A stretch of 64,000 bases of DNA from Agarophyton chilense (Eukaryota > Rhodophyta > Florideophyceae > Gracilariales > Gracilariaceae), in contig JARGXX010000068.1 of the NCBI GenBank assembly GCA_030374765.1, forward strand, positions 3,968,001 to 4,032,000, written 5' to 3'. The position numbers and the translations under genes are program-made. The notes beneath the pieces were generated by a model. That model was not told where the DNA came from and did no database searches. It saw only the letters and a program-made list of their open reading frames with translations. Below, one piece after another: positions 18,095-53,242 of the stretch. Numbering within the stretch: position 1 is the first letter of the stretch; each line of letters starts with the position of its first letter.

Positions 18095-19875
18095 GGGCGA
18101 TTGGAATTGGAACGCCAGTTGCGTGTAAAAAGGATAGATAAGCGGGTGGGCGAGTTGACGACGTCAACGAAAGTTTGAATTTTACGCCTTTAAAGGGGGG
18201 TTTGTACTTCTGTGGAATTGACCATACGAGGACGGAGGCGCGTCGCTTCGAGTGAGTTTCTCTCTTTCGACCGTTCGGGGCTGGGCTGGGCTGGGTATTG
18301 ATTTATTGGCGACTCGTGTGGATGGGATTGAAGCTGTCATCGACAGACTGTGTCACGATTCAAGCCTATTATTGGCTGCTCTGTTCCTTTAAGGTCTGAC
18401 ATGCGAAACGTTGTTTGCGAGGAGATGTCTTCAGATTGGTTGTCGTATAGAAGATCCTGTCTGTGGTCTTGTGACAATCTTTGTGCGCCGCTTCCGTCCA
18501 GTGTTCGACGTCCGAACGTTTAAAGCACCGCGCGACTCGACGACCGAGTACAGTGGCCGAATTTAGAATGGCCGACCCCCGTTTATTTCCGTTTTCTCGG
18601 TCCGTTTTTGACTTCAGCCAGTCAAACAATGCCATTACTGTAGATACTGTACTTTAGCCAAAATATATAAACGGGCACAAGGAGAAAACAAATGAATTGT
18701 TCTTTACAGAATTAAATTGAAAAGGGTTATCTAGATCACGAAATTAGAATAAAACAGAAACTTTTAATAACCGTTGTAGCTGTGGGAGCTCACTACTCAT
18801 CGAATTTCAAACTCATTCCGCCCCGCCAACGCTCGTGGAAGCTCACTACTAGTACAGCTGTCCACGTTCCTCTGGTGTCTGGCCGGACACTTTTATAGCC
18901 TAGTCTATACGACCGCTGGCCTCATATGATGCCAAACTGTAAATTTAAAAGCTGATTTTTAATTATTTTGACCAGATTTTTTTCCTTTTTTGACCTCCAA
19001 ACAGTAAAGACTTGGTATAGCCTACTCAAAAGAATATGCGCTTAACGAAACTGCTTCCATGTGAAAGAATGCAAATTAAGGAATAAAACAGTATAGAATA
19101 TATGTTTAACTGATAAGCAGGCTAATTTCTATCTTAGAATATAAAACAGGTATTTTTCGGTGGAAAAACAGTGGTTACACTCTAAAAAATCGTTTTGAAG
19201 CTGTACATGAAACAAAACTACCTTTAAAAAAATAACCAATTTCGAACTGTCTCTCCGGTCGTATAGACACTATTGGTTGTCCCAGTAGCCTTACGTGTCA
19301 TCAAATAAAGAATTAACGAAACGACTATTCTGTACGGCTGACCTGGATTTCGAAAAAAACAATTAGAGTACATCGTCAATTGCGAAAATCTGTTTAACTC
19401 CTTGTGGTAGAACTTACCGAAAAAAAGGCCATTTGCTAAATTGCTTAGCCAATAGCTCACTCTTCAATTTTAAATTGCCTACCCAAGGTAAATCGCAAAT
19501 TGCGAAAAGATCGACGTACCGTAAATAAAACGGCCTTTCTTTACGCGATGATCACTAAAAAGCATTGACGTCCTATTCTCTTTCGTCACCGACTAAACAT
19601 GGACGTAGAGCGTCGCAAAGATCGTCGTATCACACTCAGAGCTCTACAAAGCCTTTGAAATTCTTTATTTATGTTCGTATTTCATTTTATTTCATTGAGT
19701 GAAGCCACGCAATGTTTACTGTGTACCAGAGCGTTTTGGTGGCTCAAATAGCAAACTTGTTCTCTACCCGGCTACATGGCGGGACTTCAACTTCCTTGGT
19801 GAAAATATCGTTAAAGTGTTTGACTTAGCACCCAATTCGATATTTGTCCGCTTCCTGTAATTATTTTGACGGGGC
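18095..19875. other. AT-rich gene-free stretch at the edge of the repeat tract
   Basis: About 1.8 kb. A short GGGCTGG triplication occurs at about 18,280-18,297. An 88-codon frame (18,369-18,635, minus) resembles nothing. From 18,650 the sequence is AT-rich with no coding signal. This is the transition from the gene island to the transposon tract. Confidence 0.5.
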
Positions 19876-19880
19876 CTAGT
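19876..19880. repeat. Target-site duplication of element 1 (left)
   Basis: CCTAG, identical to 30,063-30,067; length 5 as for Ty3/gypsy integrases. Confidence 0.9.
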
Positions 19881-20513
19881 GTCGTAAAATCATTTCTGGA
19901 GTATGCTACTGTCTTGTCTCGAGAGCGTGGTGACGGTCAACTGTAGGGAGCGTGGTGAAGCTCAACCTTAGAGGGTAGACGTAATAAACCTCGATGGTAA
20001 CAGGGCACCGTGAAAACTCGCAGGGGAAAACGGCGGGGAAACTAGCCTATACCGTGTAGATGAACGATGGTAGGCGTAGACGCGCGGAAAAGCTTGTGTG
20101 GTATTTGAGAAACAACGAACCAAGAGGTATAGTCGTGACCCAATTGATGCTTGTCATTATCAGACTAGGATGGAGGAGGTGCAGTTCCCTATATGCAGTG
20201 GACTGCACTCTCCAGATCACCAGGGAGGTGCCAGCAAGGCACGGTCTCTGACCTAGTGTCAGAGACCTGGCCAGCACTGGCTACAGTGCCAAGTGGCCAC
20301 TCCACTACTGTACTAAAATATATATAATTACAATTACAAGTACTAACAATTACTCAACCAGAAGGTACATGTCGACACTACACGTGGCTGACAACATCTA
20401 GAAGGTAACTCGCCTGGAGCTGCAGGGCCGATTATCCCTCGCATCCATCACTTACAAGGTCAGTGTAGTATATTGCCAACCTCAAAGGTCAGCCCTTCTG
20501 CCACTATACGACA
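19881..20513 (-). repeat. Element 1, 3' LTR (633 bp)
   Basis: Aligns end to end with 29,454-30,062. The two LTRs differ by many substitutions and a length change of 24 bp, so the insertion is not recent. It holds three exact ACC-N5-GGT motifs (19,989; 20,219; 20,479). Confidence 0.92.
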
Positions 20514-20530
20514 GACCCCCTTCCTCCCCG
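20514..20530 (-). other. Polypurine tract of element 1
   Basis: Minus-strand purine run (GGGGAGGAAGGGGGTC) directly abutting the 3' LTR; it would prime plus-strand DNA synthesis. Confidence 0.75.
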
Positions 20531-21150
20531 TGACGCACGCCCCGTGTCTCCTTCCATCAAACCATAGAGTTGTAGCGAGCGACAGCGGCGCAGGTATCGG
20601 AGTGTTGTCTGTGCGCGACGCGCGATCCCTTGAGGTTCAGAACTCGGAGCCAGTATCGGTTGGGGAGGCCGCGCGACGACGTCGGCGCACGAATTGAGCG
20701 ACAACCATTCAGGTAGGGACTGTCGTGAGGGCGATGCAGTGTAACTAGCGCGCTCGTGGACACCTTTTCGGTAGTGGCCCTGTTTCTTGCGATTCTGCTT
20801 CCGCATAGTCCACTGTCTTACAAATTTGGTATCGCACCCTTCCCAGTTACTCAAACTTCATTTCCCTCCTAGGTTTCTGCGCGCGCCGTCCCGCCTGGTC
20901 GTTCCCACGGCTCGACAACCCTTCAGGTATTGCTGCCCTTAATTGGCAGCGTCACGACCGTAACCGTGCTGTCCGGCTTTCCCTGAAGGTTTCGTGGCTT
21001 CTCGACCTTTCAGGTTTCGTCTAGCTTGTAAGGATTGACTCGTAGCGCCGGTGGGGCCTGAGCCTGCGTCGATACAACCATTGAGGTGTTGGCCTGGGTC
21101 CGTGGTGAAAGCTTCCGGTTGTGAGACCTTATTGGTATTGAGCGTCCCCG

Positions 21151-23617
21151 TTGGTAATTGCGCGACCTTTTTCCGGTTTTGCATTCCGGTTTACCCTCAA
21201 GGCGATGACAGGATCGCGCCGCCTCCTCGCACGCGTTCGAACCCGTTCGGTGCCACGTCGATGCACCTCGCGCCGCATCGTGGATTCGTCACCGATACCT
21301 CGAAGGGGTGGGTCGTCCCCACAAGTAGCATCAGCGCTCCAGAGACGTGAGATGCCGGTTATCATTGAGGTTGAAGAAGTCGGCGATTCCGAGGGGATTG
21401 ATACCCCTGCAGTTATGCCTTTAAGGTCGGATCGGTCCCGCTCCACAATACCTCAAAGGTCTGGAACCGCTCGCGACCGTACGCTGGCAACTGTTGCACC
21501 TGAAAGGTCGATTACGGTACTACCGGAAAGGTTGGATACGTTGCGCGTCTCCTCAGAACGGACCGAGGAGGCTCCACTTCAGAAGGATGAATACCCGCTG
21601 GTGTTCACCGCGGCGATGGAGGTCGAGTCATCACCTCGTTCTTCGGGTCGAGCTACGGCCTTCCCAACCATGTCAGGTAGCGGCCCCTCTCGTGGCCGTG
21701 GACGACGGGGTATTACCCAGAGGGTAACTCGCTCGACTTCTCGAACGCCTACCAACATTGGTTTTCGCAGCGTGCCTGTCCCCGCGACACAGTTCTCCCC
21801 TGGTACTCTGGCTGACCCATACCAACACAGTGGTGGACTTCCTCCGACAACACAAACCAATTGGGCTCACAATCTCGCGTTTGGTGCGGCGAACTGGACG
21901 ACGAGTCAGTATGGACCTTTTGGCAGTACCTTCGACCAAGTGACGCACAATGACCTGTTGAAGCACGATTGGCCTGTGGCGGTGGGGAATTCGTCATTGC
22001 CGGCAGCTCTTACCAGACCACAATTGAGTACCTACTTGGGTTTGTCCCGTTGGGACTGCGAGCGCCTTCGCTCCGTTCCATTGCTCTTGAAGAAACGGGA
22101 CCAAGAGTCTCAACCCCGTCAGGGTCGAATGGAATGTTACCAGAGTCGGCAGCTTTATACACCTTTGAGGTATTTCATCCCGCCGATATATCCGAGCGAC
22201 TTGCCGTATGTGCGCATCGAACCGGAGCTGGATTATTACCGTCGATTGGTGGTGCAAGTGTGCCAATACCCGTCTATTCCGGAAACTTACCTTCCGGTTT
22301 CACCTGACTTGGTTTCCCTGAATCGGCCTTTCACCACTATCAATTGGGCTGACCGTAGTAGGTGGGGCGAGAATGCAGCGACGGAGAGTCGAGTACTTCT
22401 TACAACCTACGAAGGCCAGACGCGATTGGTACGTGCTTCGACCGGAGTGGTGGGAGTCCCATGAGGTTCCATTACCGCGGAGCGTGCCCACTCCGCCGGT
22501 TTTGGCGTACTTCGGGAGTTAGATTTCCCGGAACCTAGAGCGGTATTACCTCATTTTGTCGGTTGCCCTCTCGGAGTGGACCGTCTTGGTTGCCATCCTG
22601 GCTCTGGAGGCCGCCTGTTACGGTATCGATTGGGATTGTCGCCATCGCGACTCTGACATATACCAAGATGGTGTTCAACCTGTAGGTCGCATCTTCTTCA
22701 TACCTCCGAGGGTTGCCCAGGATACTTTCCGATTTGGTTACGAGAACATCGTGGAGGGGACCGATCATACCGTGAAGGATTCGGACTCGTATCTCGAGCA
22801 GAACAAGAATTACCATTGGGATTCCCATCAAGGTTGGGAGGCTTTCGATCCCGCAACTTTAGAGATTGTGCCTCGCCACGCCCAATAATATCCTGGGGCG
22901 CCTCCTGTTTATAAAGCTCCTGCGAGCCCCGAACCTTATCACGGTACTGTGGAGACACCAGTTGGTCGTTATGCTGGTCCCTTCCCTTCCGAGCCGTTAC
23001 CTCAAGGTCATAAGTCGCCTATATCTACGGGTGTAACTCCTACTCAACCGAGCTCCTCGCGGGTTGCTGGTCCGGTTCGACCTCTGTTGGCGGGTATTGC
23101 TCGTCTTCCGCCTCAACCTATGATGGATTCTCCGGCCGTGGTCGGTTTGCTGGCTCGAATTCGCCAGTCTTTCGTCACAAACTTTCAGAGGGCTGGGCCT
23201 ACCTCCGTGGTTGCTGCATTAACGCTCCTTGAAGGTTTGCTGCCGCGCCATGCGCAATACATGAAGGCGCTGAACCAACTTGGTTAGTTCCGCAATCAGT
23301 GCCAGTTGGACATGTACCAACTGGCCACCCGTCAGGTTGCCAATCTGGCAAGAGTCTCCGCTGCTGCGCCATCTGATCCTTTGACGGATCCCCTTCTAGG
23401 TTCTAATTTAAACCCTGCGGTTTTGCAACCCGCTCCGGCGGTTCCTTTCGTTCATCCTCTTTTGGTTTCGACTCCTCTCCCCAGTGGCGGGGCTACCGCT
23501 CCTTCGCTACCTTCTAGGTCGATGGCTCCTAGCCTTTCTGCAAGTTTCCCTCTGTGGGTAGTCAATAACACGGGTTCTCCTGATCCCACGGCTCCTAAAC
23601 CGAAAGGTCCTTCTTAA
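21151..23617 (+). pseudogene. Element 1 antisense accessory gene (unknown conserved protein)
   Basis: About 820 codons on the strand opposite gag-pol, between integrase and 3' LTR. The first 437-codon frame (21,151-22,464) runs into the second frame at about 22,420-22,430, which stays in one frame to 23,617 apart from stops at 22,520, 22,886 and 23,285. That is one frameshift and three stops, a light load for a chance frame this long. The N-terminal part is Arg/Ser/Thr-rich and looks disordered. The central part (about 22,020-22,890) has conserved Trp/Tyr-rich blocks (PYVRIEPE; VPTPPVLAY; GRIFFIPP...GYENIV). The C-terminal part is Pro/Ala-rich. The same blocks occur in element 2's antisense gene. 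I recognise no known domain. A second in-frame ATG lies at 21,205. Confidence 0.7.
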
Positions 23618-23689
23618 AGTAAATTTTTGTCTCTTCTTGTCTCCTCTACTGTTACATTTGGTTGTTCTTTCGTGTCCTCCCATGTAGGT

Positions 23690-26600
23690 AATCTGAAACG
23701 CATATGCGTCCACCTTCTGCGGAAAACCCCGTCTTTTCTCCCCCTTCCTTAGGCCTGAGTACCACGAAGCTCTAAGGTTAGCCGTCGGCAGGCATCGTCT
23801 CCTTGCGTAGCCTTGATACGAATGTGTGGTTAACGCGCTCGACCTGTCCGTTCGTCTACGGGTGGAAGGCAGTAGTGAAATATTGCTTGATACCCAAGAG
23901 GTTACAGACTGCTTCGAAGAGCTTCGATGCCAGGTTTGAACCAGTACCGGTAAGTAGGTACAGTGGTGCACCATACGGTTAGACCCAATTTTTGAGTAAC
24001 GCGATCGCCAGCGTTGTTGACTTCGTATCCTTTAAAGGTATCGCTCTCGTGAGCTTCGAGAACCTGTCGGTGATCATTCGAATGTGCTGATACCCGTTCT
24101 TGGTCTTCGGAAGTGGTCCTAGAAGGTCTATCGCAACAAACTCGAGCGTACCCGCTGCTTGAAACAGCTTGAGATACTTTCGATTCTTTCGAATACCACC
24201 GCAGGTACGAACACAAGATTCGCATTGACCTACAAAGGTATAGACATTATGGGCCATATGAGGCCAATATAACTGTTGCCTCAAGTTGTAATACATCCTG
24301 GTGGCAACGGAGTGTCCCGATAGTCGTGGGTATTGCGCGAGATACAAGAGTCTCGGGCGCAGTGCCTTCGGAACCACCTTTTGAAGGCTACCACCCAAGT
24401 TTGACCTTCTCACGATGTACCCATTGCGGTCCACGTCGAACGGTGATCCTTTGAAACCAATTTGGTCAGCCAGGGTTCTGCAGTAGGCATCCTGGGCCTG
24501 TTCTCGTAGAAATTCCTCTAGGGTTACGGGCATGACGTTCGTTTCCTCTAGGGTCAGTATCTGCGTTGCCATGTCGGTGTTCCGCAAGGCACTTTCTTCA
24601 GGTAAGTCCCAACATCTTTCTAGGTGTTCGCCGGTACCATTTTGGTTTGATGACTCCAAAAAGCAAGGGATATCATCGTCCACAGGTTCTGTTTCTAACC
24701 CTGAGGTGTTTAAGCGTGACATAGCATCAGCTTTGTTGTGCTTGACACCTGGACGGTACTGTACGTCGTATTCAAACTCCGACAGTCTCAACCTTCAACG
24801 GGCAAGTGTACCAGACGCATCTGCGAGTCCAACGATGCACGTTAAGGCGTCTTGGTCCGTGCGCAACGTAAAGCGCTCACCATAAAGGTATGGAAGGAGC
24901 ATCAACATGCTCCACACTACTGCTAGACATTCCTTCTCGGTTACCGTGTAGTTCTGCTCCGCCTCACTCATAGCGCAGCTCCAGTACCCTATAGGTAATT
25001 TGTATCCGTTGTGCTGCTCCTGCATGAGACAACAACCAATTTGGGCATGGGATGCATCTGCATCCAGCTTGTACAGTAGACCTGTTCTCGGTAACGCTAA
25101 GATTGGCAGCGATAACAGCGCTCGTTTCAATTCCTCAAAGGTATCCATTTCGTCGTTCGATAGATTCCCAAACCGTTCAGGTTCACCTTTCTGGAGCTTC
25201 TTGTTGAGGGAAGCCGCTATTTTCGTGAATCCCTTCACGAAGCGACGATAGACGTTGCATAATCCTATGAAGGATCGTACGTCTGTCTGGGATCGTGGAA
25301 ACTTGACCTCCTGTACGCCTCTAATGATGCTCGGCGCAACCTCTAGGGTACCAGGGCCTATGATGTGGCCCAGGTATTGAACCGTTCTGGTAAAGAAGAC
25401 TCATTTGCATAGCTTCAGCGTCACCCCCGCCTCAGCTAGGAGGGTTTGTACGGTGCGTAAGTGAGAAAAATGCTCTTCTACCGATCTGTAGTAGATGATT
25501 ACATCATCGATGTATACCACGGCGGTTGTCAACTTAACCTTCGAAAGGATGATGTCCAGCGCCCTTTGAAAAGTGGCTGGAGCATTGCGCAACCCAAATG
25601 GCATCCGCATGAAGCGAAAAAAACCTGCATGGCACGTGAAGGTCGTTTTGACTCGATCTTCATCACCTACAGGTACCTGCCAATAACCACAATTTTCATC
25701 CAACGTGGTAAATATCCGCGCATCTTCCAAGGAGTCGATTCACTCATCCATTCTAGGTATCGGGTACGAGTCCCTGACGGTCACGCTATTGAGGCTCCTA
25801 TAGTCCACATAGAACCTCATACATTTATCCCTTTCTTCTGCACCAGAACCACGGAACTAGCCCAATCTGAGTTGGCTGGTTCAATTACACCTTCTTGGAG
25901 CATTCGCTCCACTTCTTTGAGTTCTACTTCTCTCGCCCTCGGACCTGCACGGTATGGTTGCTGGTAAATCGTCTCCGAGTCAGGGAGGAGCTCGATGCGA
26001 TGCTGTGTGGCCTTAATTTGGCCCAGATGGCCTGACCACATACTTTCAAACTCCTCCAGAAGGTCGAGAATACAGCCCCACAGTTCGCCGTTATCTTCAC
26101 GGATCTGGTCTGTATCTTGCCATTTCCTCTCAAGGTCAGGTTCCTTTTCTTTGTCTACCGATACCTTATCGGTTAGCTTTGCTTCCCAGTTCGTATTTAT
26201 CGATACCTTTGTGGTTCGGGATGCATTTGCGCACCCCCCTTCCTTATCGAAGGCGACCTCGCCGAGATCAGTGTGAGCTACGGTGAAGACCTCTTGTGGT
26301 GCCGGTAGTGCGATGCCTACATTGGTATTTTTCGGCAATTTCACATCGTGACTGCTGAAGTTACTTAGACACACGTTCAAGGGTTGATTTGGGATGCTTT
26401 CGACAATTCCGTTGGCCATCAAGGTGAGTTGTCGATGTTCCAACCTCGGATGGTTTTGTAGTATGTCCAGCCTGGGGGTCGCACACGACACCGTACCAAT
26501 ATTTGGTGCGTTGGCGGGATAAAAACCTGTTTGGTAATGCGAACTTTGTTGGAGACCGTTTCGGTGGATATCGTCTGCTTCGGTTTGACGAACCATCCCC

Positions 26601-27096
26601 AATTTGTTTCCGTATTACCTAAAATGGCAATTCGTCCCCCTTGACGTAGGGCGACGGTATGGGAACCGGTAAGGATTGCTTTGACATGTCTGTCGATGAA
26701 GTTCGTACCTAGTAGGCAGTCTGCTGGTAAACGGTCGACAACAAAGAATTTCAGTCTTACGTTGAGGTGTCCGAGCTGAACCACAGTGGTGAGCATACCT
26801 CGAAGGTTTAATGGGCGCTCATTTGCATCCACCAGCGGGTTGTCGTCGGGAGGTCGGCTCAAGTTCCGAAGTACCGCCTCAGGTATGACGCGGGAGTTCG
26901 GGACGTTTGGGCCTGCCCCCGTATCCAGCACGCAGGTGGCCGGAACCGCAAGGCGATCGGAGAAACACATTGAAGCACGTACTTTATAGTTCTTGTACTT
27001 CATATGACAAACTGGACCTGGTTGTGACGTGTTCTCTTCCACCTTCAAGGTTCTGGGTATCGATTGGCCTTCCACTTGTAGGTTGAGTCCGGCCAT
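23690..27096 (-). pseudogene. Element 1 protease-RT-RNase H-integrase (pol)
   Basis: Order along the minus strand: an aspartic protease with VLDTGAGPN (26,419-27,096); a linker and RT start (25,817-26,602); RT palm with the YIDDV active site (25,401-25,730); RNase H with KLDADAS and the VTEKECLAVVW helix (24,795-25,238); and integrase with a zinc domain ending CESCVRTC and a catalytic core with VAIDLLGPLP and ITDRFSK (23,979-24,791). A shifted frame continues to the HPQTNGQVER block near 23,830-23,860. Protease-to-RT junctions are frameshifted; RT to integrase stays in one frame with a few stops, one of them TGG to TGA between RNase H and integrase. The domain order RT-RNase H-integrase makes it Ty3/gypsy. 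Confidence 0.9.
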
Positions 27097-27122
27097 TACG
27101 CCAACCGTTCGGTCTTTTCCTC

Positions 27123-29315
27123 CTATACGGGAGGGGTTGAGTTCAAGTGTGATGTTTCCTTGATGGTATTGACCTGTAGCGGTGTACGGGGTTGGAACCT
27201 ATTTGGTGCTTGCGTTGAAGACCCATAGAGGCGTTGGTGATTCTGCATGCGAGCCTGAATCAACTGGTTTCTCATCCCTGGAGGTAACTCAGCGCAATTG
27301 TTTGCCAAATGGTCTGTCAAGAGACAAAACCAGCAAACAAAGCCTCCAGTTTTGGGGTCTCGCGTTACCATTGAGGAGGGCTTCGAAACCTGGTTGGTAG
27401 GAGCAGTGGCGTAGGATGTGGATGGCGAATTATGGGAGCTCGCTCCCGGCATCCTATGCGAGCTCCCCAAAGTTGGCGGCGATTGTACCGAATTTGGTGT
27501 ACGCGTTGACGACCAATTTCCTACCGTCGAAGGTTTAGAGAACCGACCCTGGGTTGCTACCAAGTGGATAGCGGTCCCTGGAGGTACTTCGATGTGCGAG
27601 CTACCCTCTGAGGTTGTTGTGTCTTCAATTTCCAAGACTGACCTTTTCGATTTATCCTTCGAGGTTGAAGGCACGGCTGGTCTCTTTCCGAGCCGAAGGG
27701 TATCCCCAAGGCCCTTGGAGTATCGAGCCAGCCCATTGCAGTCTACGTTTCGGTTAGCGCCAGGGTAATTGCGTACCTGGGAACAGATCGCTTTGTCAGC
27801 ATTGTCCGCAAATAGAGACTTTAACCTCGAGGTAGTGAACACATTACCGAAGCGGGTTGCCAGATTCCACAGCGCGAGCGAAAACTCCGATTCGGTTTGC
27901 CCAGACCTTTGATGGTAGGCGAGGACTTCCGAATAAGCCTCTTGGATAACCTCATCGGTGGCGTATGTTTCCAAAAGGAAATTGACCACTTCTGGGTATG
28001 ACTCCAACATCTCTGTGCCATCCGCATCACTTGCTAAGGTATTGCCGCAGAGCCTACCCTGCAGCAAGTAGTATGCTTGTCCTTTCAGGTAAAACTGAAA
28101 TAGCCACATATCAGCGCTTTCGGAAAACCCATTTTGGTCACATGCAAGCTTGAAATTCTGTAGAAACTCAATCACCGCAATAGGATCCGTACCTGTGAAG
28201 GTTGTGTCACCCATTTGGAAACTGAGCTTCTTGTGATGCTTAGTAATCTTCTGAGCAACCTCTTGGGTATATTGAGAAGACTTGTTGATCAACCGATAAG
28301 TCCTGTAATCAACCGCTTTGGTGAACATATCGTTCAACGGTTGGTGCACCTCTAGGTCCATTTCGGTGCCCGACTCAGAGTCGGGCGACTCATTGTATCG
28401 CTTTTTACCCTTACGGGTCTTTTTCGACGACTTTTTCGTCAAACTGTTCGGTTTTTTCTTCTTCTAACCTTTACGGTCATCATCCGACGATGAACTCGTA
28501 TAGGAGCTGGAGTCTGACGAGTTGGGGTCTGAATCATCCTCTCGATTCTTTCCCCTCTTCGTCCTCCTCTTCTTTGCTTTTCGGTTTCTTCGTCGCTCAT
28601 CCAACCAGGCAGACGAATCCTCCTTGGGATCACCTCCATCGGTATCCTTTTGAACGAAACCAGTAATTGGTGGCAGATAAATGTCTTGAGGATCTACCTT
28701 CCCCGGGACCTCTTGACGCTGCCTTGGAACTTGTAGGTACTCCCTATCAGTAGGTAAGTATTTGGAATGAGTGGCATGACCCATTTGGAACCCTTGAGGT
28801 ATGCGCTTTGCGATGGTCACATGTGTAGGTCGGGATTCTGCGAATCCCTCGGAAACCCAAAGGTCCTGCACAGCGCGGTAAACATGCTCCCTAGCATCTG
28901 TAAAGAGATACAGTTTCACCATTTCAGGTATCCTGTCCGATAGCTCTTGAGCTGCTCGGTCAACCCCAATACGGGTAAATGCATCGACGTCCATTAAGGG
29001 CGGAACAATCCGGGTATCCGACTTCTCCTTTACGGTTAATGCATCCTCGAACGCGAGGGTAACAAGGGCTTTCGCTCGCTCTTCGAGCTGAGGCCAAAGC
29101 TCCTCCGCTGCAACCTCAATTGGTAATTACCTTTGAAGTTCCGTTGCTATAGGCGGCGGACCATGTACCTTTACGGTTTTGTCCCGAGGGTGCTGGAGCA
29201 GCTCCTCGGGGTTCTCCAGAATCAGTTGAGCCAATGGGGCTCCTTTAAAACCTTTATCGCTTGGCGGGGCGCTCGCACCACCCGTATTCCTTTTAGGTCG
29301 TTCCATTTGGGACAA
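27123..29315 (-). pseudogene. Element 1 gag
   Basis: One reading frame of about 730 codons from 29,315 to 27,123, broken by two in-frame stops at about 29,127 and 28,464. The N-terminal third is charged, followed by a Lys/Arg-rich then Ser/Asp-rich segment. The capsid-like part contains FTGTDPIAVIEFLQNF and LFQFYLKGQAYYL. A canonical zinc knuckle CWFCLLTDHLANNC (C-x2-C-x4-H-x4-C) is near the C-terminus, identifying it as the nucleocapsid-bearing structural protein. Confidence 0.85.
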
Positions 29316-29436
29316 ATAGTGGTATCCTGTATTGCTTTGCGGGATTTACTGAAACCAAATAGGTGTACGAGCGTCCAATCCTTCTCGGAATCTCGTGTGA
29401 ACTGTGAAGGTACGACGAAACATAAAAATAACTTCT

Positions 29437-29450
29437 AAGTCGGGAGACCA
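29437..29450 (-). other. Primer-binding site of element 1
   Basis: Fourteen bases that on the minus strand read TGGTCTCCCGACTT, 3 nt from the 5' LTR. It begins TGG, as needed to pair with a tRNA CCA end. The same 14 bases occur in elements 2 and 3. The primer tRNA is not identified, and it is not initiator Met. Confidence 0.8.
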
Positions 29451-29453
29451 AAA

Positions 29454-30062
29454 TGTCGTACAATCAGCTCTGTGGTATGCTACTGTCTTGTCTCGGGAGC
29501 GTGGTGACGCTCAACCATAGAAGGTAGACGTAATACACCTCGATGGTAACAGGGCACCGTGAAAACCCGCAGGGGCAAACGGCGGGGCAACTAGCCTATA
29601 CCGTGTAGGTGAACGATGGTAGGCGTCGACGCGCGGGAAAGCCAGTGCGGTAGTTGAGAAACAATGAACCAAAAGGTATAGTCGGGACCCAATTAATGCC
29701 TGTCTTTATCAGACTAGGGTGGAGGAGGTGCAGTTCCCTATGTGCAGTGGACTGCACTCTCCAGATCACCCGGGAGGTGCCAGCAAGGCACGGTTTCTGA
29801 CCTAGTGTCAGAAACCTGGCCAGCACTGGCTACAGTGCCAGATGGCCACTCCACTACTGTACTAAAATAGATACAATTACAATTACAAGTACTAACAATT
29901 AGTCAACCAGAAGGTACATGTCGACACTACAAGTGGCTGACAACACCTGGATGGTAACTCGCCCGGAGCTCCATGGCCGATGATCCCTCACATCCATCAC
30001 CTACAAGGTCAGTGTACTATATTTCCAACCTCGAAGGTCAGCCCTTCTGCCACTATACGACA
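29454..30062 (-). repeat. Element 1, 5' LTR (609 bp)
   Basis: Starts TGTCGTA and ends TACGACA in plus orientation. It holds five exact ACC-N5-GGT motifs, more than the other LTR. Confidence 0.92.
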
Positions 30063-30067
30063 CCTAG
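30063..30067. repeat. Target-site duplication of element 1 (right)
   Basis: CCTAG, matching the left flank exactly. Confidence 0.9.
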
Positions 30068-33002: not shown

Positions 33003-33361
33003 TGTGAGACGACTGTGGCTGTCGCTCATGATTACTTAGGGCAAATGAATGTACCAGAAAGTGCAAGAGTGGAAGTGGTTCAGGACAAAGGATTCCTGCG
33101 CGTCGGTTCTGCTGCCTCCGCGATTGTTTACTGCTCGGGGTCTAGCTTGCCGCTTTTATCCCCTTTCTATCCCCTTGCTTGCGTGTCCGTTCGCTTTGGA
33201 TACGCTGGGGTTGCATTCTGCTTGTATGACCTTTCGCAGTCATGGCGCGCACCACAGAGCTGACAATTATGCTTGGTATATTCGTAATGCAGTATTGCTA
33301 CGAGCTGCATTTAGCGCATGCTTTACATCTCAATTTGATTTTATCAGTTTAAGCTCTCACA
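33003..33361 (-). repeat. Element 4, 3' LTR (359 bp)
   Basis: Starts TGTGAGACGAC, ends AAGCTCTCACA. It matches 37,897-38,266 closely. Confidence 0.93.
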
Positions 33362-33478
33362 CACCCCCAAGTTGCATGAGCTTTATAATGCAACTCACGT
33401 CCAACTCTTGCTGTCGAGTTCAAAAGAATGATGCGGAGGCAAGCATAGCCTGCCTGTTGCTGCAATTTTGTTCAGCAA

Positions 33479-36400
33479 GCGGTGAGAATCGGGGTTGCAC
33501 TTAGTCAACGCATCGGCTATGTGGACCCTCCCCTGCACCCATCGTAGCACATCTAGTTCTCTTGCTTCAAAAGAATCCCTGATACGCTGTACTGTCTGAC
33601 GGAGACGAAAATCTCTACCTTCATGCAATGTAGTTATCGTGTCGAAGAGTCCTTTTGAGTCAACGTTCAGGATGTGTTTGAAATCATCTACTGAAGATAT
33701 AGAGTTCATTGCGCACTTTAAGTAAAACCCACGATCATCTGCCTCAGTGCATGCCAAAATCTCAGCCCCGTAGGAAGAGTAAGACACTCTGCGCTGCTTT
33801 CCACTTGCCCAATCAATTATGTGGTAGATGGTGGCATCTCCACTCATTGTGCGCAATCGACGGCCTGTTATAAATCCAGTTTGTCCATAGAGCTGCGACG
33901 AAGTGACATTGAAAGCTGCATCTGAAAATGTTAACACTTCCGCACATTTGACTATTTCTGGTGGTCGCTTGTATATCAAAACAGAGTGTAGCTTCTTTAC
34001 CGCTACCAGGTTCTTATTGGCTTCGATCAAATCATCTACTCTAAAGTGAGGGAGCCGCTGCTGCATAGCTGATCCGATGAAAGCGGCTTGCGGAAGTGCT
34101 CCGCTGCCAAGCCATATTAGTTCACCAGCCATCTTGCGGTATGCTCTTTTCTCGTATTCGGATGCCTTGTCGTTCATCATGGTTCTGCGTTGAGCACTGA
34201 TGTTCAGCGGTTTGATAGGTTCTGAATACTGTTGCATGGATAGCTTGATGCTGAAATCTTCCGACTGCTCTATCGTACATCCATTAAACTGTACTTCGTC
34301 GTCTACAATTGACTTACTAATTTGGAGTCTTCCTGATATTTCTTTTGCAAAAGCATGCATGGTTCCGACATCACCAGCCATAAGCAGATCGTCGGTGAGC
34401 TTTGCAATTAGCAGAGTAATGTCTCCATCATGGTTGCGACGCAAGAACAGCTGACTAATGCCATACACTCTTTGAAATCCGGCCTCTTCCAATAGCCATG
34501 TTTCTATGACTTGCGCCCATTGCCTACCTGCCTCGCTGATTCCGTATGGGAGTTTAACGAGTTTCCATAAAAAACCCCGTTTGTCTCTCCACTCAGTTGG
34601 CGGTCGGACGTACAGGTCTCGCGAGATTGGGCCGCTTTGGAGGTATGCATCTTTCACATCAATGCATCCGATCTTAAGCTTCAGTATCGTTGCCAACGAT
34701 AACATCATGCGTATGACGTGGAATTGGGCGCTGGCAGAATCATTCCGGATGTTTCCCTTTTCTTGATCTCTGTTGCCATGTGGGCACAGTCTGGCTTTCA
34801 TGCGCTTGCGCCCTTTTTTCTCGCGTTTAACTTTATAAACGATGTGAGAGGTGATGACATTCGAGTCATGTGGTACAGCGTGTTCTGGCACTTTGACATA
34901 AGCATCTTTCCAGGCTGTCTCTAACTCTTCTGCTACAGCCTTATCCAATATCCACTGCGGTGCACAGTCCATCTTTTTCCTAGTAACTTGCACACCCCCA
35001 GTCACCTGGAATATATCATCTAAGACCCTCTGCTCATCCGACTGTAGCTCAGTATTCGGAGTTACGGGCTTTTCATTCGGGAGCGATCCGATATCTCGCT
35101 CTGTGTCGCCAAAGACGGCCTTAGTGAAAAGACTCGTACGGAACTCGGGAGCTGTTGTCGTATGTTCATGGTCTTCCTCCGGGCCAAAAATGTCCAACAT
35201 TAACTGCGCTGGGTCCTTCGAGTAACGCTGAACCAAATTCCCTTCGTCATTGGGTAATTCTTCTTGATGACCAGAAGTTGGGGTGTCGTCGGCAAGCTGT
35301 CTTCAAGTATACCTTGTTAAAGTTCCGCGGTTAGCTCTCCTTCTGGTACCAACCGAATGTGCTCGTATGCCACCTGCATGAGGGGGTCCTTTATCCGAGC
35401 GACGGCACTTGACAAAGAACGGCGTTGCGGATATTACAGTTGCTCTTATCCATCGAACAGTGTCATTCTGTTTCGACGTGTTGTAATAGACCCAAATCTT
35501 GGATCCCTATTTCAATGCTGAGAGTGGTATTAGGTTATTATCACGTGAACGCATCAGTTTCTGCAGCGCTCGGGTGGCTGTCATGTGCTTGTGGGCTTCT
35601 AGGATGTCCGTAGGTACATGATTGTCGGGAATACCTAGCAATGATGGCGAATATCCTCGAGCTAGTTGAAAGGAGCTCAGAGTCGAGCGTCCGTGAAACA
35701 GATTGCACAAAAATGATGCGCGAGCCACGAGAGTTTGCGGGGATGCAGTTGTTTGTTCACGAGATATCTTCTCGAAGATTCTTTTGAACAATCCGTTATT
35801 ACGTTCTACTTTACCATTCTTCGATGATGAGCGAGACGGGCATTCTTGGATTTTGATGCCGTGTGCCGTAAGAATCTTCTTGAGAACTGGTTTGGTAAAT
35901 CTTGGGTCGGCGCTGAACGTACGTGGTGCGCCATGGTGATATATCCATTCGGTTTCGAGTTTGTCGGCCATCTCCTGGGCCGTTCGCTTCGCTACAATAA
36001 CTCTCTCACCGTAGTTGGTGCCTGCATCGATCATGTTCAGTACCTCGTATTTGTCCTCAGATATATAAACGACTAAGAAGTCTGCCTGCATTGACTGGTT
36101 GAAATCTTCGTTCACGTGGCTGAGCGAAATCTTCTTTTTGTGTGATGGTCTACCTGTCGAAGCACAAATGTCACACGAGCTACAAATTGTATCACACACG
36201 TTTGACAATTCAGGGCTCAGTTTGCCGGCGTCTTCTAGGATAGATCTCATTTCATCAGCCGTTGCATGAGTAAACCTGTGCAGTTTCTTAATAGCGTTCT
36301 TGTCAATTCGTGAGTTTCGTGTCGTGCTGCCTAATAGCCTTTTCATCGAGGACTGTTCATGCGCCACGACATCAATACGGAGGCTTTCATTACGGTCGTC

Positions 36401-36796
36401 ATCAGACGCAACGTAAGTAAAGAACACTCTCTCATGTGTATCAGTTGGCCTCTTTATGGAAACAGTCGGAGGATCAGTGCGATTCATAGTGTCGCAGTGC
36501 TTCTTAACATCCAATCCAAGTATAGTCGGGGAAGTGCCTTCCATAATGTCAAACGGCAGTGCAGTCGGGCGACCGTGAATGTCATTGATAACCAGTGTCC
36601 ACGTAGCAATAATCGGTTTTGCGTTTGCTGCAACATCACCCCACCCATGAAAGTAATGGTTGCGTGGAGGGTCAAGAATGAGGGAATATCCAAGTGCGTC
36701 ACATAGTGCCGTAGCATTATCGATGCCACTTGTTGACGTGGGTGCTCCTTCATCAAGAATAGGATTGAGCTCCAGCGGGAGCCTGCCAGACCTCAA
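33479..36796 (-). pseudogene. Element 4 integrase-RT-RNase H (pol)
   Basis: The first part (36,796-35,507) has the integrase zinc domain (RFTHATADE, CDTICSSCDIC) and DDE core residues (QADFLV, the SADPRF Asp, NGKVERNN Glu). The same frame resumes at 35,236 after about 90 codons that include stops. It then gives RT with IGCIDVKDAYLQ and LVKLPYGISEAGRQW, an LTDDLLMAG active-site block instead of the usual YVDD, and RNase H with SYSSYGAEILA and GFITGRRLR. The end lies near 33,500 by the 3' LTR. The order integrase before RT is diagnostic of Ty1/copia. The divergent RT box suggests an atypical clade of the kind reported in red algae and marine eukaryotes, from memory of the family only. Confidence 0.88.
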
Positions 36797-37887
36797 CGCC
36801 GAAAAAGCGACTTCTTCGCGTGGTCAGTTGTATCCATCACTGGATCGATCTTTTCTGGTGGAGGATCGTCAATCGCTTTTGATATAGATCCGTTGGAACT
36901 TTTAGCTTGTCTGCGTCGGCGTAGTATTTCTTCCATACATTTCTTGCGGTCTTTATACCAATGTCCAAGCTCTCCGCATGCGCGGCACGGGTTTTCCTCC
37001 TTGAGTTTTTTCACGAAACCTTCCCGGCCTGGCTGCTGAGCAAAGACACGTTTCCCTAAGAGCGAACGACTTGCAGAATCTCTCAAATTGCCGACGCTGA
37101 ACTCCTGTTTATCATGAACATGGGAAAGTGATGCGGCTGCTGCATCCAAGGTAAACATCTGACATGTGTCACCTACTCTTTGTTTATGCTGCTGAGTCAA
37201 TCTTTTTGCCTTCTCTATAATGCCGCTTCCCGTAGCGGAATTTTCCAAAGTACTGATCATCAAATTCAATTCCGAGTGTGATAACAATAGGCATAGTTGC
37301 ACTTGCCTACTTGAGTGGGACATATCGGCTGTGAGTTGAAATATAATAGAGTTCATTGTATCCGCAGTCAGCCGCGCATTGCGGAGCATGAGTATCGCAA
37401 ACTGCCTCGTAAACGATTCTTGAGTGCCGGCAGTATGGTTCTTGTATTTTGCCACTGCTCCCTTGAAGCGTGCTGCATAGGAAGAAACCTTTTCACCATC
37501 CTTTCTTTCACAATTGTGTACGGCAGTGAGAAGATCTAGCTCTCTCTTGACTACTTCTGTAGGAGAGTCTGTTGCAATTGTTTTAATTACAGACTCGATC
37601 ATGTGTTCATTTCCTATATCAGTTTCATCAAAGTCCAATGAGAGATCTCCTGCAGCTTCAGCTTCCCTTAGCAGTTCCTTAGCCGTAGCGTCGCAGCGTA
37701 GGTAAATAAGCCTTCCTGCGCCACGTCAGAATGCCTTGAATTTTGTGTCATATTCTGCAAATGTGGAAATCAACTTCATCCATGTACGCAGAGACTGGCG
37801 ATAATCAACCTTAGAAGTGACGTTGGTAATGAACATTGGGGCCTCGTTCATACTTCCACCTGATCTCGGAGAGCATTCACCCTCTGG
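36793..37887 (-). pseudogene. Element 4 gag
   Basis: The frame runs from an ATG inside the primer-binding site (MGPEGE...) through one in-frame TGA at 37,726 to a stop at 36,793, roughly 360 codons. Helical capsid-like sequence (TWMKLISTFAEYDTKF; SSYAARFKGAVAKYKNH) is followed by a zinc-knuckle-like CRACGELGHWYKDRKKC in which the last Cys is displaced. The next frame (integrase) overlaps it by 4 nt in the -1 frame beside a CTTTTTC run, so -1 frameshifting is possible. Confidence 0.8.
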
Positions 37888-37896
37888 GCCCATAAC
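37884..37896 (-). other. Primer-binding site of element 4: half-tRNA initiator Met type
   Basis: The plus strand reads CTGGGCCCATAAC right up to the LTR boundary with no spacer. This equals the 5' half of the anticodon arm of eukaryotic initiator tRNA-Met, ending in the anticodon loop. Drosophila copia is known to prime from a tRNA-iMet fragment cut in this loop, so the same mechanism is inferred. The complementary strand supplies an ATG (ATGGGCCCAGAG) that could also start gag. Confidence 0.8.
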
Positions 37897-38266
37897 TGTG
37901 AGACGACTGTGGCTGTCGCTCATGATTACTTAGGGCAAATGAATGTACCAGAAAGTGCAAGAGTGGAAGTGGTTCAGGACAAAGGATTCCTGCGCGTCGG
38001 TTCTGCTGCCTCCGCGATCGTTTACTGCTCGGGGTCTAGCTTGCCCCTTTTATCCCCTTGCTATCCCCTTGCTATCCCCTTGCTTGCGTGTCCGTTCGCT
38101 TTGGATACGCTGGGGTTTCATTCTGCTTGTATGACCTTTGGCAATCATGGAGCGCACCGCAGAGCTGACAATTATGCTTGATATATTCGTAATGCAGTAT
38201 TGCTACGAGCTGCATTTAGCGCATGCTTTACATCTCAATTTGATTTTATCAGTTTAAGCTCTCACA
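37897..38266 (-). repeat. Element 4, 5' LTR (370 bp)
   Basis: Same ends as the other LTR; it contains three tandem tatccccttgc units where the 3' LTR has two. Confidence 0.93.
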
Positions 38267-40690: not shown

Positions 40691-40699
40691 GTGACAATT

Positions 40700-41145
40700 T
40701 GTAACGCAATGACTGGTAGGTCGGCATACGGGTTTCAACCTTAGGTAGCGTGGTAGAGCGGGTCCTAAGGTTCGAATCCTTGACGGCAGCACTCCCAGAG
40801 TAATTGGAAAAATGGGCTGGCGTTTACTGACTAGTCCTACAGGTCGGAGCTCCGGAAACGATGGCTTGAAGACCAATTGGTAGAACTAATATACCAAAGG
40901 GCGTTATTCAGTATCCTAACAGTGCCTACCTTACTCTAAGGAAGAAGCGTCACTCGAGCCAAGTAAATAACAATGGGGAGGCACATGGATCTCCCTGGCA
41001 CTGTAGTGCTAATCTATTACACTAATTAAAATAAAATAATTATCTAAATGAGTCCAGCTGAGGTCGGCCAGTCCACGTGGTCTCTATAAGATCCCTCAGG
41101 TCCCGGGGGCCTACAGAGCTCAACCATTATCGTTGCTCCTTCACA
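40700..41145 (-). repeat. Element 2, 3' LTR (446 bp)
   Basis: TGTAACGC...CTTCACA in plus orientation. It carries the tRNA-like segment at about 40,740-40,795 with loop TTCGAAT. Confidence 0.92.
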
Positions 41146-41559
41146 TATATCCCTCCTTGGGATTCGACGGCCACGGCGAAGTCGAGATTGCTTCATGATT
41201 GACCCATGGGACGTGAGCGCTTAATTGCTCCTAGTACTATTGGGCGCGACGGGACGTCGCGTCGGCATCACCTGCGCGGGTACCAGGCAGCATGAGCTGC
41301 CCATTGGCGCCAGGGTGGCAATTATTTTGCCTAAGGACTGAAACTCGCGCGCTCCGGGGACACTGGCCATAGGTGCATCGCCGGCGCATTCCTCGTGGCG
41401 CGGTAGCGCGATAGTCCCTTGGCTTATTCTCCCCTGACGATCATTGGGCCCTTTCTTAGTCCCCGCTCTTCCTTTGGCGACCCTCCGCACTTCGTCCACC
41501 GTGGTTTACGCATGACAGTCCGCTCAGGTCAATTTCGTCGTCTCGTCTTCTCATCGTGA

Positions 41560-43659
41560 TATTTTTAATTTGGTCGCGCGCGGTGCAGAACTCGCCTTAT
41601 AAGTCCGTCGGATATGCCGTTCTCCATCCGGACTATGTCGCTTCCGTCGGTTGTCCTATCCACTTTCTGGCAGACCAGCTTGTGGGCAGGGACACCATTG
41701 CTTCGAACAACCGAGCGGGGAGCTCCTCGGGATACCAAGTGGCCTACGAATGTCCCGGGGACCGCTATGACCATACCCTCGGACGAAAACCACGGGCATT
41801 GCGTCATGCCATTTTGCCGTCCTCTGTGGGAGAATACCACCGGTTTTGTCATATGTATCTCGATGCCCAAAGGTGTGCCAAGATACCCGAATTCTGGATG
41901 GGGTGCAAGAACGCGCGCAGCGTCTCGTGATATAACCGGTGGTTGCATTGTCCTGTGGATCCGCGTTCGGCGACGCGATGTTGCAGCCTCATCCAAGCGA
42001 ACATGCCGTACGTCCGCTGCAAGGAGGAAGCAGAATACCAGTTCAGGGTGAACAAACACCTTTCGGACCTATACACCGATTTCATCTCGCCTCATGTGCG
42101 ATTCCATCCCACGGGTCACAACCTCTTGGCTCTTATGTGCTTCCGGCTGTCGTATGATCTCCTGTTATGCATGTCCAACCGGGTCTATTAGAACGAGATG
42201 CACGAGCCCGATGGTCGTTTGCGTCAATACCTGGTGTTCTTCTTCTGTTGGCACCAGGTGGAGTTTCACGACATGAGCGCAGACAAACGTCGTCCATTGT
42301 ATCTTTCGCTCTTCCACGAGGATGAGAACAAATGGTCCATGTATTGGCGTTTTTCGCCGCTCCTGTTCGTTCCCACGCCGTCTGTGGTAACGTACCACTC
42401 GTCCCAACTCATGGGCGACGACAATGACCGAAGGTCGTGGCTGTCCTGGCAGGTACTCTTCGTTGACTTCGGCGTGATGTCCCTCATGGCCTTCTGTATA
42501 CTGCGAAGTACGGAATCCGTGGTAATGTCCGTTCGAAGGATTGGAAGGTGTGGCACGATGAGGACATACACGGTACTCGAGGTCGGCTAATCACGCTCCC
42601 GGACATCATGATCCACTTCTTAAGGAACCTCGGCATCCAGAATATAGTCCGTAGGACGGAGTTCGAGGTCGAGGAGACTGAGGCCGTTTGGATCGTGTCC
42701 TACAGATGGAGTGGGGCAAGACTCCCTGGTTTCTTTGGTATGACCACGATACCAACTCGTTCACGCCAATTCCCCTACACCCGCAGGGTCGGGACGACGC
42801 TCGTGCCTATCCAGCCAAGCCTTTAAGGAATCAACAATCGGAAATCTCGAGGCGTCATGTGCCCGACTATTATCCGAAGGCGATTGGTTTCGATCCCGTG
42901 TGCTTCGAGCCTGATGTGGAAGCCACGCCGTTGGTTCCTGCTGGTATGTCCGATGGAGAATCCTTCGGTGAAGATCCCTTCGTCCTACCTGTAGAGGGCG
43001 TCCATTCTCCGGTGGAATCCACCGTGGTGTTGCCGACCGCTTCCCCTCTTCCAGCTCCTCTGGGCGCTGCTTCTCCTGATGAACTCTCATATGAGCCGCC
43101 TGTCACACAAGTGGACATCCCTCCTGGCGAGATTATTGTCGAAGCAGAAGGTTCTGTAGGTGATGCGCTGGCTCAAACGTCCACTGGGGGCGTCAAAATC
43201 GCTCTCTTCTCTCCGTTGCCACCGTTTCCCACTTCGGTCACGGCTTCGGCTTCAGATCTCCGTAATGTCTGCCGTACCGTTGGTATTACTACCTAGATGG
43301 ACATTGCGACAGTCCTGAGAGAAGCTTGCTCCTGGAAGCGTCGCTCAGAGCGCTACGCCGCGGTTGTCGAACAGGGTCGGGATCGAAAGACCGCCATGGA
43401 CAATATCCTACAGTAGAATGCCCAAGTGATGTCCCAGAGAGTTACTGCTGACTTGGATGCCCGGTATGGTTTAAATTTGAGCGACCGGGAGACTTCCGAT
43501 TGTGACAATAGTGTTTCAGGTGAATCTTCGCCCAAGAAGCGTGCTCGGCTCGCTGGGGCCGGTCCTAGAGGCCCAGTTGGCTCTTCGGGTGACCCTAGTC
43601 CCCGTTTCACTTCTGCAGGTTCCAATGAAGACGATGGGGTTACTCCTGCACCACCCTAG
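41560..43659 (+). pseudogene. Element 2 antisense accessory gene
   Basis: Plus-strand gene opposite to gag-pol, between chromodomain and 3' LTR. Segments in changing frames are 41,943-42,4xx (MPYVRCKEEAEYQFR; LYLSLFHEDENKW; FVPTPSVVTYHSS), about 42,490-42,720 (YGIRGNVR; GRLITLPDIMIHFLRNLGIQNIV), and one frame 42,688-43,659 with a stop at 43,294 and another near 43,415. That last frame has WFLWYDHDTNSFTPIP, a long Pro/Val/Asp-rich stretch, then basic SSPKKRARL. The blocks match element 1's antisense gene in order. It ends about 120 bp from the end of pol, tail to tail. Upstream (41,220-41,560) coding similarity to element 3 continues. No known domain. Confidence 0.65.
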
Positions 43660-43780
43660 TGAGTTCGGTTGGTGTTTGGAGCGCTTTTGCGAACCTTATT
43701 ATCATGGCGAGAGCTGTTGGGTCTCTGTTAGCTAGTCAAATAAAATAATGCTTGTACTTTCTTGAGGTCGCTCCTGTATC

Positions 43781-48151: not shown

Positions 48152-48201
48152 TTGGTTGAGGCAGGGGCTTAGAAAGGGAGGATTTGCCTAGCTTCGACCC
48201 T

Positions 48202-50437: not shown

Positions 50438-50445
50438 AGGATTTT

Positions 50446-50459
50446 AAGTCGGGAGACCA
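50446..50459 (-). other. Primer-binding site of element 2
   Basis: Minus strand TGGTCTCCCGACTT, 3 nt inside the 5' LTR, identical to elements 1 and 3. Confidence 0.8.
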
Positions 50460-50462
50460 AAA

Positions 50463-50908
50463 TGTAACGCAATTATTGGTGGGTCAGCGTACGGGTCTCG
50501 ACCGGTAGTAGCGTGGTAGAGCGATTCCCAAGGTTCGTATCCTCGACGGCGGCACTCTCAGAGCACTTGGTGCAATAGGCTGGCGTTTACTGCGTAGTCC
50601 TAAAAGTCGGAGCTACGGAAACGATGGCTTGAAGACCAGTGGGTGGAACTAATGTACCAAAGAGGGTAATTTAGTATCCTAACAGTGCCTACCTTACTCT
50701 AAGGGAGAAGCGTCACTTGAGCCAAGTAAATAGCACTGGCGAGGCGCTGGGATCTCCCTGGCACTGTAATGCTAATCTATTACACTAATTATTATAAAAT
50801 AATTATGTAAATGAGCCCAGCGGAGGTCGGCCACCCCTCGAGCCGTCTATAAGATACCTCAGGCCCCGGCGGTTTACAGGACTCAACTGTTATCTTTGCC
50901 CCTTCATA
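50463..50908 (-). repeat. Element 2, 5' LTR (446 bp)
   Basis: TGTAACGC...CTTCATA in plus orientation; the last bases have mutated from CACA to CATA. It is nearly identical to the element 3 5' LTR except in the outer roughly 100 bp. Confidence 0.92.
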
Positions 50909-53239: not shown

Positions 53240-53242
53240 TTT

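What the first reader, a model, noticed from the sequence alone, without database searches (positions are those of the whole stretch)
19881..30062. Element 1 is saturated with a dispersed split palindrome ACC-N5-GGT
Scanning by eye I counted about 45-50 exact ACC-N5-GGT sites over 10.2 kb, where 2-3 are expected by chance. There are also some 40 near-variants with N4 or N6 spacing and many single-mismatch forms. Examples start at 19,989; 20,219; 20,479; 20,704; 20,762; 20,918; 21,005; 21,077; 21,126; 21,241; 21,450; 21,498; 21,522; 21,715; 22,161; 22,441; 24,456; 25,339; 26,780; 26,797; 29,167; 29,354 and 29,537. They occur in both LTRs, in the non-coding leader of the antisense gene, and in genes on both strands and in several codon phases, so codon use or a tandem array does not explain them. 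The spacer is AT-biased. This looks like a dense array of binding sites for a dimeric protein.
Basis: seen in the sequence. Interest (0 to 1): 0.88.

Follow-up and report, generated by a model that had tools for sequence, protein, structure and literature searches.

The report
Retrotransposons packed with tiny palindromes
A mobile element in what looks like a red-seaweed genome carries the same short mirror-image DNA mark about every two hundred letters, and related elements that share an unusual reversed gene are packed with their own, differently sized mirror marks, which looks like a self-recognition code not described in the papers searched.

Summary
Element 1 (19880-30062; Ty3/gypsy-type LTR retrotransposon, gag-pol on minus, antisense gene on plus) holds 55 ACC-N5-GGT against 6.2 expected from its ACC and GGT counts (maximum 14 in 300 third-order Markov sequences). 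The excess stops at the LTR edges, covers LTRs, leader and genes, and recurs in 6 of 6 fetched copies; host genes and a copia-type neighbour lack it.

It is one case of something broader. Four other gypsy-type families of this genome with a homologous antisense gene are also saturated with short perfect inverted repeats, of many different sequences, each family with its own arm/spacer length (6/3-4, 4/4-5, 4/4, 4/3). All 15 ORFs tested there exceed 200 synonymous-codon shuffles. Four gypsy elements without a detectable antisense homologue show no comparable excess. Arms are Watson-Crick (no clear G-U enrichment), short arms are GC-richer (3 of 3 families tested), longer pairing is avoided in element 1 and L049, and positions turn over between families.

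Best reading: family-specific sites, read as paired or dyad-symmetric nucleic acid, probably by the element's own antisense protein, comparable to VANC self-tagging. The arrays are shown; reader and function are inferred.

The parts
19880..30062 (-). Element 1: Ty3/gypsy-type LTR retrotransposon, gag-pol on the minus strand
   Evidence: LTR pair 88.5% identical, ends TGTCGTA...TACGACA, 5-bp target duplication; protease-, RT-, RNase H- and integrase-type Pfam matches in gypsy order; 96 antisense-gene candidates scored in the genome (capped list)
19875..19879 (.). target site duplication CCTAG, left
30063..30067 (.). target site duplication CCTAG, right
19880..20513 (-). left LTR (3' LTR in gag-pol sense); ACC-N5-GGT at 19988, 20219, 20479
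29454..30062 (-). right LTR (5' LTR in gag-pol sense); ACC-N5-GGT at 29537, 29600, 29768, 29945, 29999, 30028
21042..23617 (+). antisense gene between integrase and 3' LTR, interrupted in this copy; uninterrupted 875-aa and 818-aa frames exist in copies L042 and L040
   Evidence: tblastn of L042 frame on the window: 21042-21329, 21151-22395, 22388-23614; ORF lists
27123..28994 (-). gag region (two ORFs, 28464-28994 and 27123-28442); no Pfam match, named by position
23979..27096 (-). pol region: aspartyl protease (26419-27096, below Pfam cut-off), RT (25401-25730), RNase H (24795-25238), integrase zinc domain (23979-24791)
19988..30038 (.). array of 55 ACC-N5-GGT: 19988, 20219, 20479, 20704, 20762, 20918, 21005, 21077, 21126, 21241, 21450, 21498, 21522, 21715, 22161, 22441, 22580, 22662, 23201, 23274, 23327, 23509, 23892, 24456, 24636, 24747, 24879, 24986, 25172, 25339, 25381, 25516, 25943, 26163, 26205, 26525, 26555, 26780, 26797, 27041, 27197, 27388, 27949, 28258, 28312, 28467, 28790, 29167, 29354, 29537, 29600, 29768, 29945, 29999, 30028 (plus 20 N4, 28 N6, 11 N7)
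40695..50909 (-). Element 2: another gypsy-type family, CC-N3-GG 109 and CC-N4-GG 117 against 51.5 expected; possible antisense gene 41997-42775 (+), homology weak
52793..61609 (+). Element 3: relative of element 2 in inverted orientation; CC-N3-GG 100 and CC-N4-GG 103 against 46.7
   Evidence: RNase H and integrase Pfam matches
33003..38266 (-). copia-type LTR element (RVT_2), negative control without the array

Best explanation
Element 1 belongs to a group of gypsy-type retrotransposons, in what is most likely a gracilarialean red alga, that carry an antisense gene between integrase and 3' LTR and are saturated, in coding and non-coding DNA alike, with short inverted repeats whose arm and spacer lengths are specific to each family. 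In element 1 the repeat has a fixed sequence (ACC-N5-GGT, half-site ACC(T)); in the sister families L048, L049 and L053 the arms are nearly free in sequence but must pair, and L050 lies between (C-rich 5' arms). SHOWN: the arrays, their family-specific geometry, their excess over composition and synonymous-codon controls, and their presence in the families with a clear antisense homologue and absence from the gypsy elements without one.
For: (1) Element 1; copies. (2) Sister families with a homologous antisense gene, stems at the best loop against loops 14-60 of the same DNA: L048 6-bp/3 nt 43 against 2.5 (z 24), L049 4/4 174 against 37.2 (z 24), L050 4/4 123 against 38.3 (z 15), L053 4/3 146 against 35.6 (z 19). 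Antisense homology: L048 v N-family 1e-12, L042 v L048 8e-8, L053 v L050 6e-98 and v L042 3e-11. (3) Negatives, 4-bp stems with loops 3-5: gypsy L045 z 1.1, L046 -0.3, L047 -1.8, L054 -1.0; copia-type -1.7; host 0.8; no antisense homologue at E < 0.1 in those four. (4) 15 of 15 ORFs tested in the four families exceed all of 200 synonymous-codon shuffles. (5) Arms in L048 have 73 different sequences among 75. (6) Shorter arms GC-richer, longer arms less so, in 3 of 3 families tested. (7) Pairing beyond the arm avoided: element 1 11 v 30.7, L049 45 v 83.0, p 4e-6. (8) G-U pairs not clearly enriched. (9) Positions at homologous coding sites coincide about as chance predicts (obs/exp 86/121, 185/153, 70/122, 350/356, 494/425, 509/454). 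(10) The three families with 4-bp arms have the closest antisense proteins (35-39%), L048 and element 1 are more distant; only six families, so weak.
Against: No direct evidence that the antisense protein binds anything: no Pfam match, no PDB sequence match, low-confidence model (mean pLDDT 51) without a significant fold match. Element 1 itself shows no pairing beyond ACC/GGT at inner positions (17 v 17.7), so it could be an ordinary sequence-specific site. Avoidance of longer pairing is not seen in L050 (85 v 73.6) and is not significant in L048 (12 v 18.2) or L053 (59 v 66.3; 5-bp arms 9 v 13.8). No compensatory double changes among close copies (0; about 0.5 expected by chance in one comparison). 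Reduced divergence of arms is partly expected from choosing intact sites, so it does not prove selection. Element 2/3 antisense homology is weak (7e-5 with composition correction off; not found at E<=1 with it by the window-genome antisense queries), and its motif excess is the weakest. RNA against DNA is unresolved. Some strand asymmetry of flanks or loops in L050 and L053 is unexplained.
Confidence: 0.45

Rival explanations
1. Dispersed RNA stem-loops: packaging signals read by Gag, or genome-scale RNA structure hiding the transcript from host defence.
For: Hairpin-like geometry with length/GC compensation; dispersed degenerate stem-loop packaging signals are known, also in a reverse-transcribing virus (abstract of PMC7612645). 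In the L048 family single G-U pairs in gag-pol sense exceed A-C pairs somewhat (38 of 12.2 v 29 of 14.0 in L048; in L051, read in reverse, 40 of 12.3 v 23 of 13.5).
Against: G-U stems are not enriched in L049, L050 or element 1, although RNA would tolerate them; flanks and loops are mostly strand-symmetric; arrays follow the antisense gene, while gypsy elements without it, which also need Gag and packaging, lack arrays.
Confidence: 0.2
2. Self-folding small RNAs: because both strands fold, siRNAs cut from the element would form hairpins and load or pair poorly, protecting it from RNA silencing.
For: Both-strand function would explain the Watson-Crick strictness and the mostly strand-symmetric surroundings and the spread over the whole element.
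Against: A 3-bp ACC/GGT arm would hardly fold; avoidance of longer arms and family-specific geometry are unexplained; no small-RNA data were available.
Confidence: 0.1
3. A mutational process: template switching during reverse transcription or repair turns imperfect inverted repeats into perfect ones.
For: Yields Watson-Crick arms of free sequence without G-U; the decline of divergence in arms does not exclude it.
Against: Arm length peaks sharply at 6 in L048 and 4 in L049, extension is avoided in two families, element 1 uses one fixed sequence, and gypsy elements with the same kind of RT but no antisense homologue show nothing.
Confidence: 0.12
4. An ordinary array of binding sites for a host or element homodimeric DNA-binding protein (element 1 only), unrelated to the sister families' repeats.
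For: Fixed ACC/GGT half-sites, strand symmetry, no inner pairing in element 1, even spacing (CV 0.69, 3 gaps under 20 bp v 15.9 expected).
Against: Spacer varies from 4 to 7; base pairs just outside the site are avoided (11 v 30.7); sister families with the homologous gene have the same kind of array with different rules.
Confidence: 0.13

Closest known systems
VANC anti-silencing proteins of Arabidopsis VANDAL transposons (passages of PMC5735166; abstract of PMC10398659)
   Same: Element-encoded, fast-diverging protein family with family-specific short target motifs carried many times by the element itself
   Different: VANC motifs (YAGTATTAY; [quoted passage not shown] here the sites are dispersed through coding and non-coding DNA and in sister families have no common sequence. 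The elements are LTR retrotransposons; homology to VANC was not compared directly (no Pfam match at all).
Antisense ORFs of plant Retand/Grande/RIRE2 gypsy elements (passages of PMC11963269)
   Same: Antisense gene between pol and 3' LTR in gypsy elements, function unknown, DNA binding proposed there
   Different: Those encode the TRP28 domain (PF04195); the red-algal antisense proteins match no Pfam family. [quoted passage not shown]
Genome-scale ordered RNA structure of RNA viruses (abstract of PMC3950689)
   Same: Base pairing spread over a whole genome without conserved sequence
   Different: Here no clear G-U enrichment, exact short arm lengths per family, and strand symmetry
Dispersed stem-loop packaging signals (search listing; abstract of PMC7612645)
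   Same: Many degenerate short stem-loops dispersed through a genome and read by one of its own proteins
   Different: Those share a loop motif in RNA (RGAG in HBV); no shared loop motif is evident here and the sites are far denser

Membership tests
VANC/VANDAL-type anti-silencing system | element encodes a protein homologous to VANC | tested here: not met
   no Pfam match for antisense proteins of five families or their homologues; no direct comparison with VANC made
VANC/VANDAL-type anti-silencing system | family-specific motif repeated in the element | tested here: met
[quoted passage not shown]
   sites dispersed and in ORFs
VANC/VANDAL-type anti-silencing system | protein binds the motif and removes silent marks | not testable with these tools
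   needs experiment
Ty3/gypsy LTR retrotransposon | LTRs, PR-RT-RH-IN order | tested here: met
Retand-type antisense ORF (TRP28) | antisense ORF between pol and 3' LTR | tested here: met
Retand-type antisense ORF (TRP28) | TRP28 domain PF04195 | tested here: not met
   Pfam scans without a match
GORS / RNA packaging stem-loops | pairing at RNA level, G-U pairs tolerated on the functional strand | tested here: inconclusive
   no G-U enrichment in L049, L050, element 1; modest in the L048 family
Homodimer DNA-binding site array | fixed dyad-symmetric half-sites | tested here: inconclusive
   met in element 1; not met in L048 (73 of 75 arms distinct)

The most novel reading that the evidence does not exclude
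A self-recognition code made of nucleic-acid geometry rather than sequence: each retrotransposon family is marked about every 35-130 bp by Watson-Crick inverted repeats of a family-specific arm and spacer length, read by its own antisense-encoded protein, so that the mark can sit anywhere, even inside genes.
Probability: 0.4. Interest if true: 0.95.

Novelty: categorically new. Interest (0 to 1): 0.85.

Why it matters
Whole-element saturation with short inverted repeats of fixed arm and spacer length but free sequence, differing between families and tied to an antisense gene, does not fit VANC motifs, RNA genome structure or packaging signals as described in the papers seen. It gives a concrete hypothesis and a ready target for a long-open question, what the antisense genes of gypsy elements do, and would be a way for a mobile element to tell itself from its host without a fixed sequence that the host could easily counter.

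Tried and rejected
Codon usage or protein sequence as the cause: rejected by synonymous shuffles (in element 1's own ORFs 4 of 5 exceed all 200 shuffles, 23979-24791 does not). Composition: rejected by Markov sequences and by loops 14-60 as control. Tandem array: no, sites are dispersed.

Strand asymmetry of element-1 mismatches (TCC..GGT 24 v ACC..GGA 7; AAC..GGT 16 v ACC..GTT 7) looked like an RNA signal but is not convincing after background correction and overlap with N4 sites. Helical phasing: a 9.5-bp period in L049 (p 0.025 against gap shuffles over all periods), nothing convincing in L048, L050 or element 1. RNA against DNA energies: inconclusive; a simple hydrogen-bond score did better in two of three families. 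A motif EM was confounded by coding periodicity (it also scored L047 and L045). Compensatory changes: none seen, copies too close. Structure and fold search of the antisense protein: uninformative. No negative elements beyond L045-L047, L054 and the copia-type one could be fetched.

Papers: eight searches of the held library were answered, none on exactly this feature; absence from print is claimed only for those searches.
Full report
WHAT IT SITS IN. The window is G000:C68:3968001-4032000 of an 80-Mb, 135-contig genome. The closest named relative of the antisense protein family is Gracilariopsis chorda BWQ96_10156 (42% identity to the L050 protein), so the host is most likely a gracilarialean-type red alga (inference). 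Element 1 spans 19880-30062: LTRs 19880-20513 and 29454-30062 (88.5% identical), ends TGTCGTA...TACGACA, target duplication CCTAG. Gag-pol is on the minus strand with protease-, RT-, RNase H- and integrase-type Pfam matches in gypsy order (the protease match is below Pfam's cut-off). The plus-strand gene between integrase and 3' LTR is interrupted in this copy; copies L042 and L040 have single frames of 875 and 818 aa.

THE OBSERVATION. 55 exact ACC-N5-GGT in the element, 12 in the rest of the window; 6.2 expected from ACC and GGT counts; Markov order 3 mean 6.4, maximum 14 of 300. N4, N6 and N7 are also raised (20, 28, 11). Nearly 40% more GGT than expected have CC at -7/-6 on each strand. 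Sites cover LTRs, leader, antisense and gag-pol regions in all phases and stop at the element's edges. They are more evenly spaced than random (CV 0.69; 3 gaps under 20 bp against 15.9 expected). All six fetched copies show the N5 peak.

ELEMENTS 2 AND 3. Another gypsy-type family in the window, present as an inverted pair, has CC-N3-GG and CC-N4-GG in excess (109 and 117 against 51.5; 100 and 103 against 46.7) instead of N5. Host genes and the copia-type element (RVT_2) show neither.

SISTER FAMILIES. Searching the genome with antisense proteins (capped lists) led to more families. One stretch each was analysed: L048 (C5, one period of a tandem array), L049 (C34), L050 (C68), L053 (C1). All are gypsy-type by Pfam (L053 by integrase domains and a 66% DNA match to L050 over 4,973 nt). 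Their antisense proteins are homologous to each other and to that of element 1. All four are saturated with short perfect inverted repeats: L048 6-bp arms with 3-4 nt spacer (75 against about 5), L049 4-bp arms with 4-5 nt (292 against 74.5), L050 4-bp arms with 3-5 nt, best 4 (294 against 114.6), L053 4-bp arms with 3 nt (146 against 35.6). In L048, 73 of 75 arms are different sequences, and density is similar in coding and LTR/leader parts (4.0-9.9 per kb, except 0 in a 155-nt gap). L050 has C-rich 5' arms. 15 of 15 main ORFs tested exceed the maximum of 200 synonymous-codon shuffles (these are the main non-overlapping ORFs I chose, not all listed).

NEGATIVES. Gypsy-type L045, L046, L047 (one tandem period each) and L054 (6 kb, cut at one end) have no antisense homologue (best E 0.16-0.38, or no hit) and no comparable excess of 4-bp stems with loops 3-5 (z 1.1, -0.3, -1.8, -1.0); weaker signals there reach z 3.5 at isolated geometries (L045 6-bp/3 nt 8 v 2.2; L054 5-bp/6 nt 16 v 6.9). 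L047 has a 287-aa minus-strand open frame without homology, so 'no antisense gene' there means no homologue.

NATURE OF THE SITES. (a) Watson-Crick only: stems with G-U are not enriched in L049, L050 or element 1; in the L048 family single G-U in gag-pol sense is modestly above A-C. (b) Arm length and GC trade off: in L049, 4-bp arms with 3 or 4 GC are 7.5 and 20 times over shuffles, 5-bp arms only with 2-3 GC; L050 and L048 show the same trend. (c) The base pair just outside the arm is avoided in element 1 (11 v 30.7) and L049 (45 v 83.0); not in L050 (85 v 73.6) and not significantly in L048 or L053. (d) Flank and loop composition is mostly the same on both strands; exceptions at p<=0.002 in L050 (two) and L053 (one), and one at p 0.03 in L049. 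(e) In element 1 no pairing beyond ACC/GGT: there the site is a fixed sequence. (f) Positions in homologous coding DNA of different families coincide about as chance predicts, so density is kept while positions turn over.

SELECTION? Motif cores in element-1 copies diverge by 0.031-0.046 against 0.057-0.095 in flanks and 0.059 for ACC/GGT elsewhere; arms in L048 and L049 relatives diverge less than the rest. Part of this is expected from choosing intact sites, so it supports but does not prove selection. The stronger argument is a family-specific geometry that persists through turnover, ORFs included.

MECHANISM. Correlation with the antisense gene (5 of 5 families with a clear homologue, plus elements 2/3 with weak homology, against 0 of 4 gypsy elements without) points to the antisense protein as reader. 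It has no Pfam match, no PDB sequence match and a low-confidence model, so binding is inferred. By function the nearest analogue is VANC (passages of PMC5735166); by anatomy the antisense ORFs of plant Retand elements (passages of PMC11963269). Membership in either fails a tested feature. Whether the paired form is DNA or RNA of both strands could not be settled.

VERDICT.

Noticed in passing
window 43515-61609: Elements 2 and 3 lie head to head; one stretch of 2956 nt (47954-50909 / 52793-55748) is 97% complementary while the rest is 81-93%, as if part had been homogenised.
   Followed up: no
G000 contigs C5, C49, C28, C105: Tandem arrays of LTR elements with period of one element (9734, 6523, 5759 and about 6343 bp), some on small contigs, read from hit spacing.
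   Followed up: partly
L042 7243-9041: Transposase-like ORF (DDE_1, HTH_Tnp_Tc5) inserted in an element-1 copy.
   Followed up: no
L040 7026-9552: Part of an N-family (L049-like) element, 94% identical to L049 over 2.5 kb, nested in an element-1 copy.
   Followed up: partly
window 19880-30062: GG-N12-CC slightly raised (72 v about 50), with similar bumps in elements 2 and 3 (66, 60), not in host genes.
   Followed up: partly
L049: Distances between inverted repeats show a 9.5-bp period (p 0.025 against gap shuffles).
   Followed up: partly
window 1-19500: Host genes in single long ORFs: tripeptidyl peptidase II (45-5048), glucan-branching-type enzyme (13382-15682), zinc alcohol dehydrogenase family (11575-12582).
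   Followed up: no
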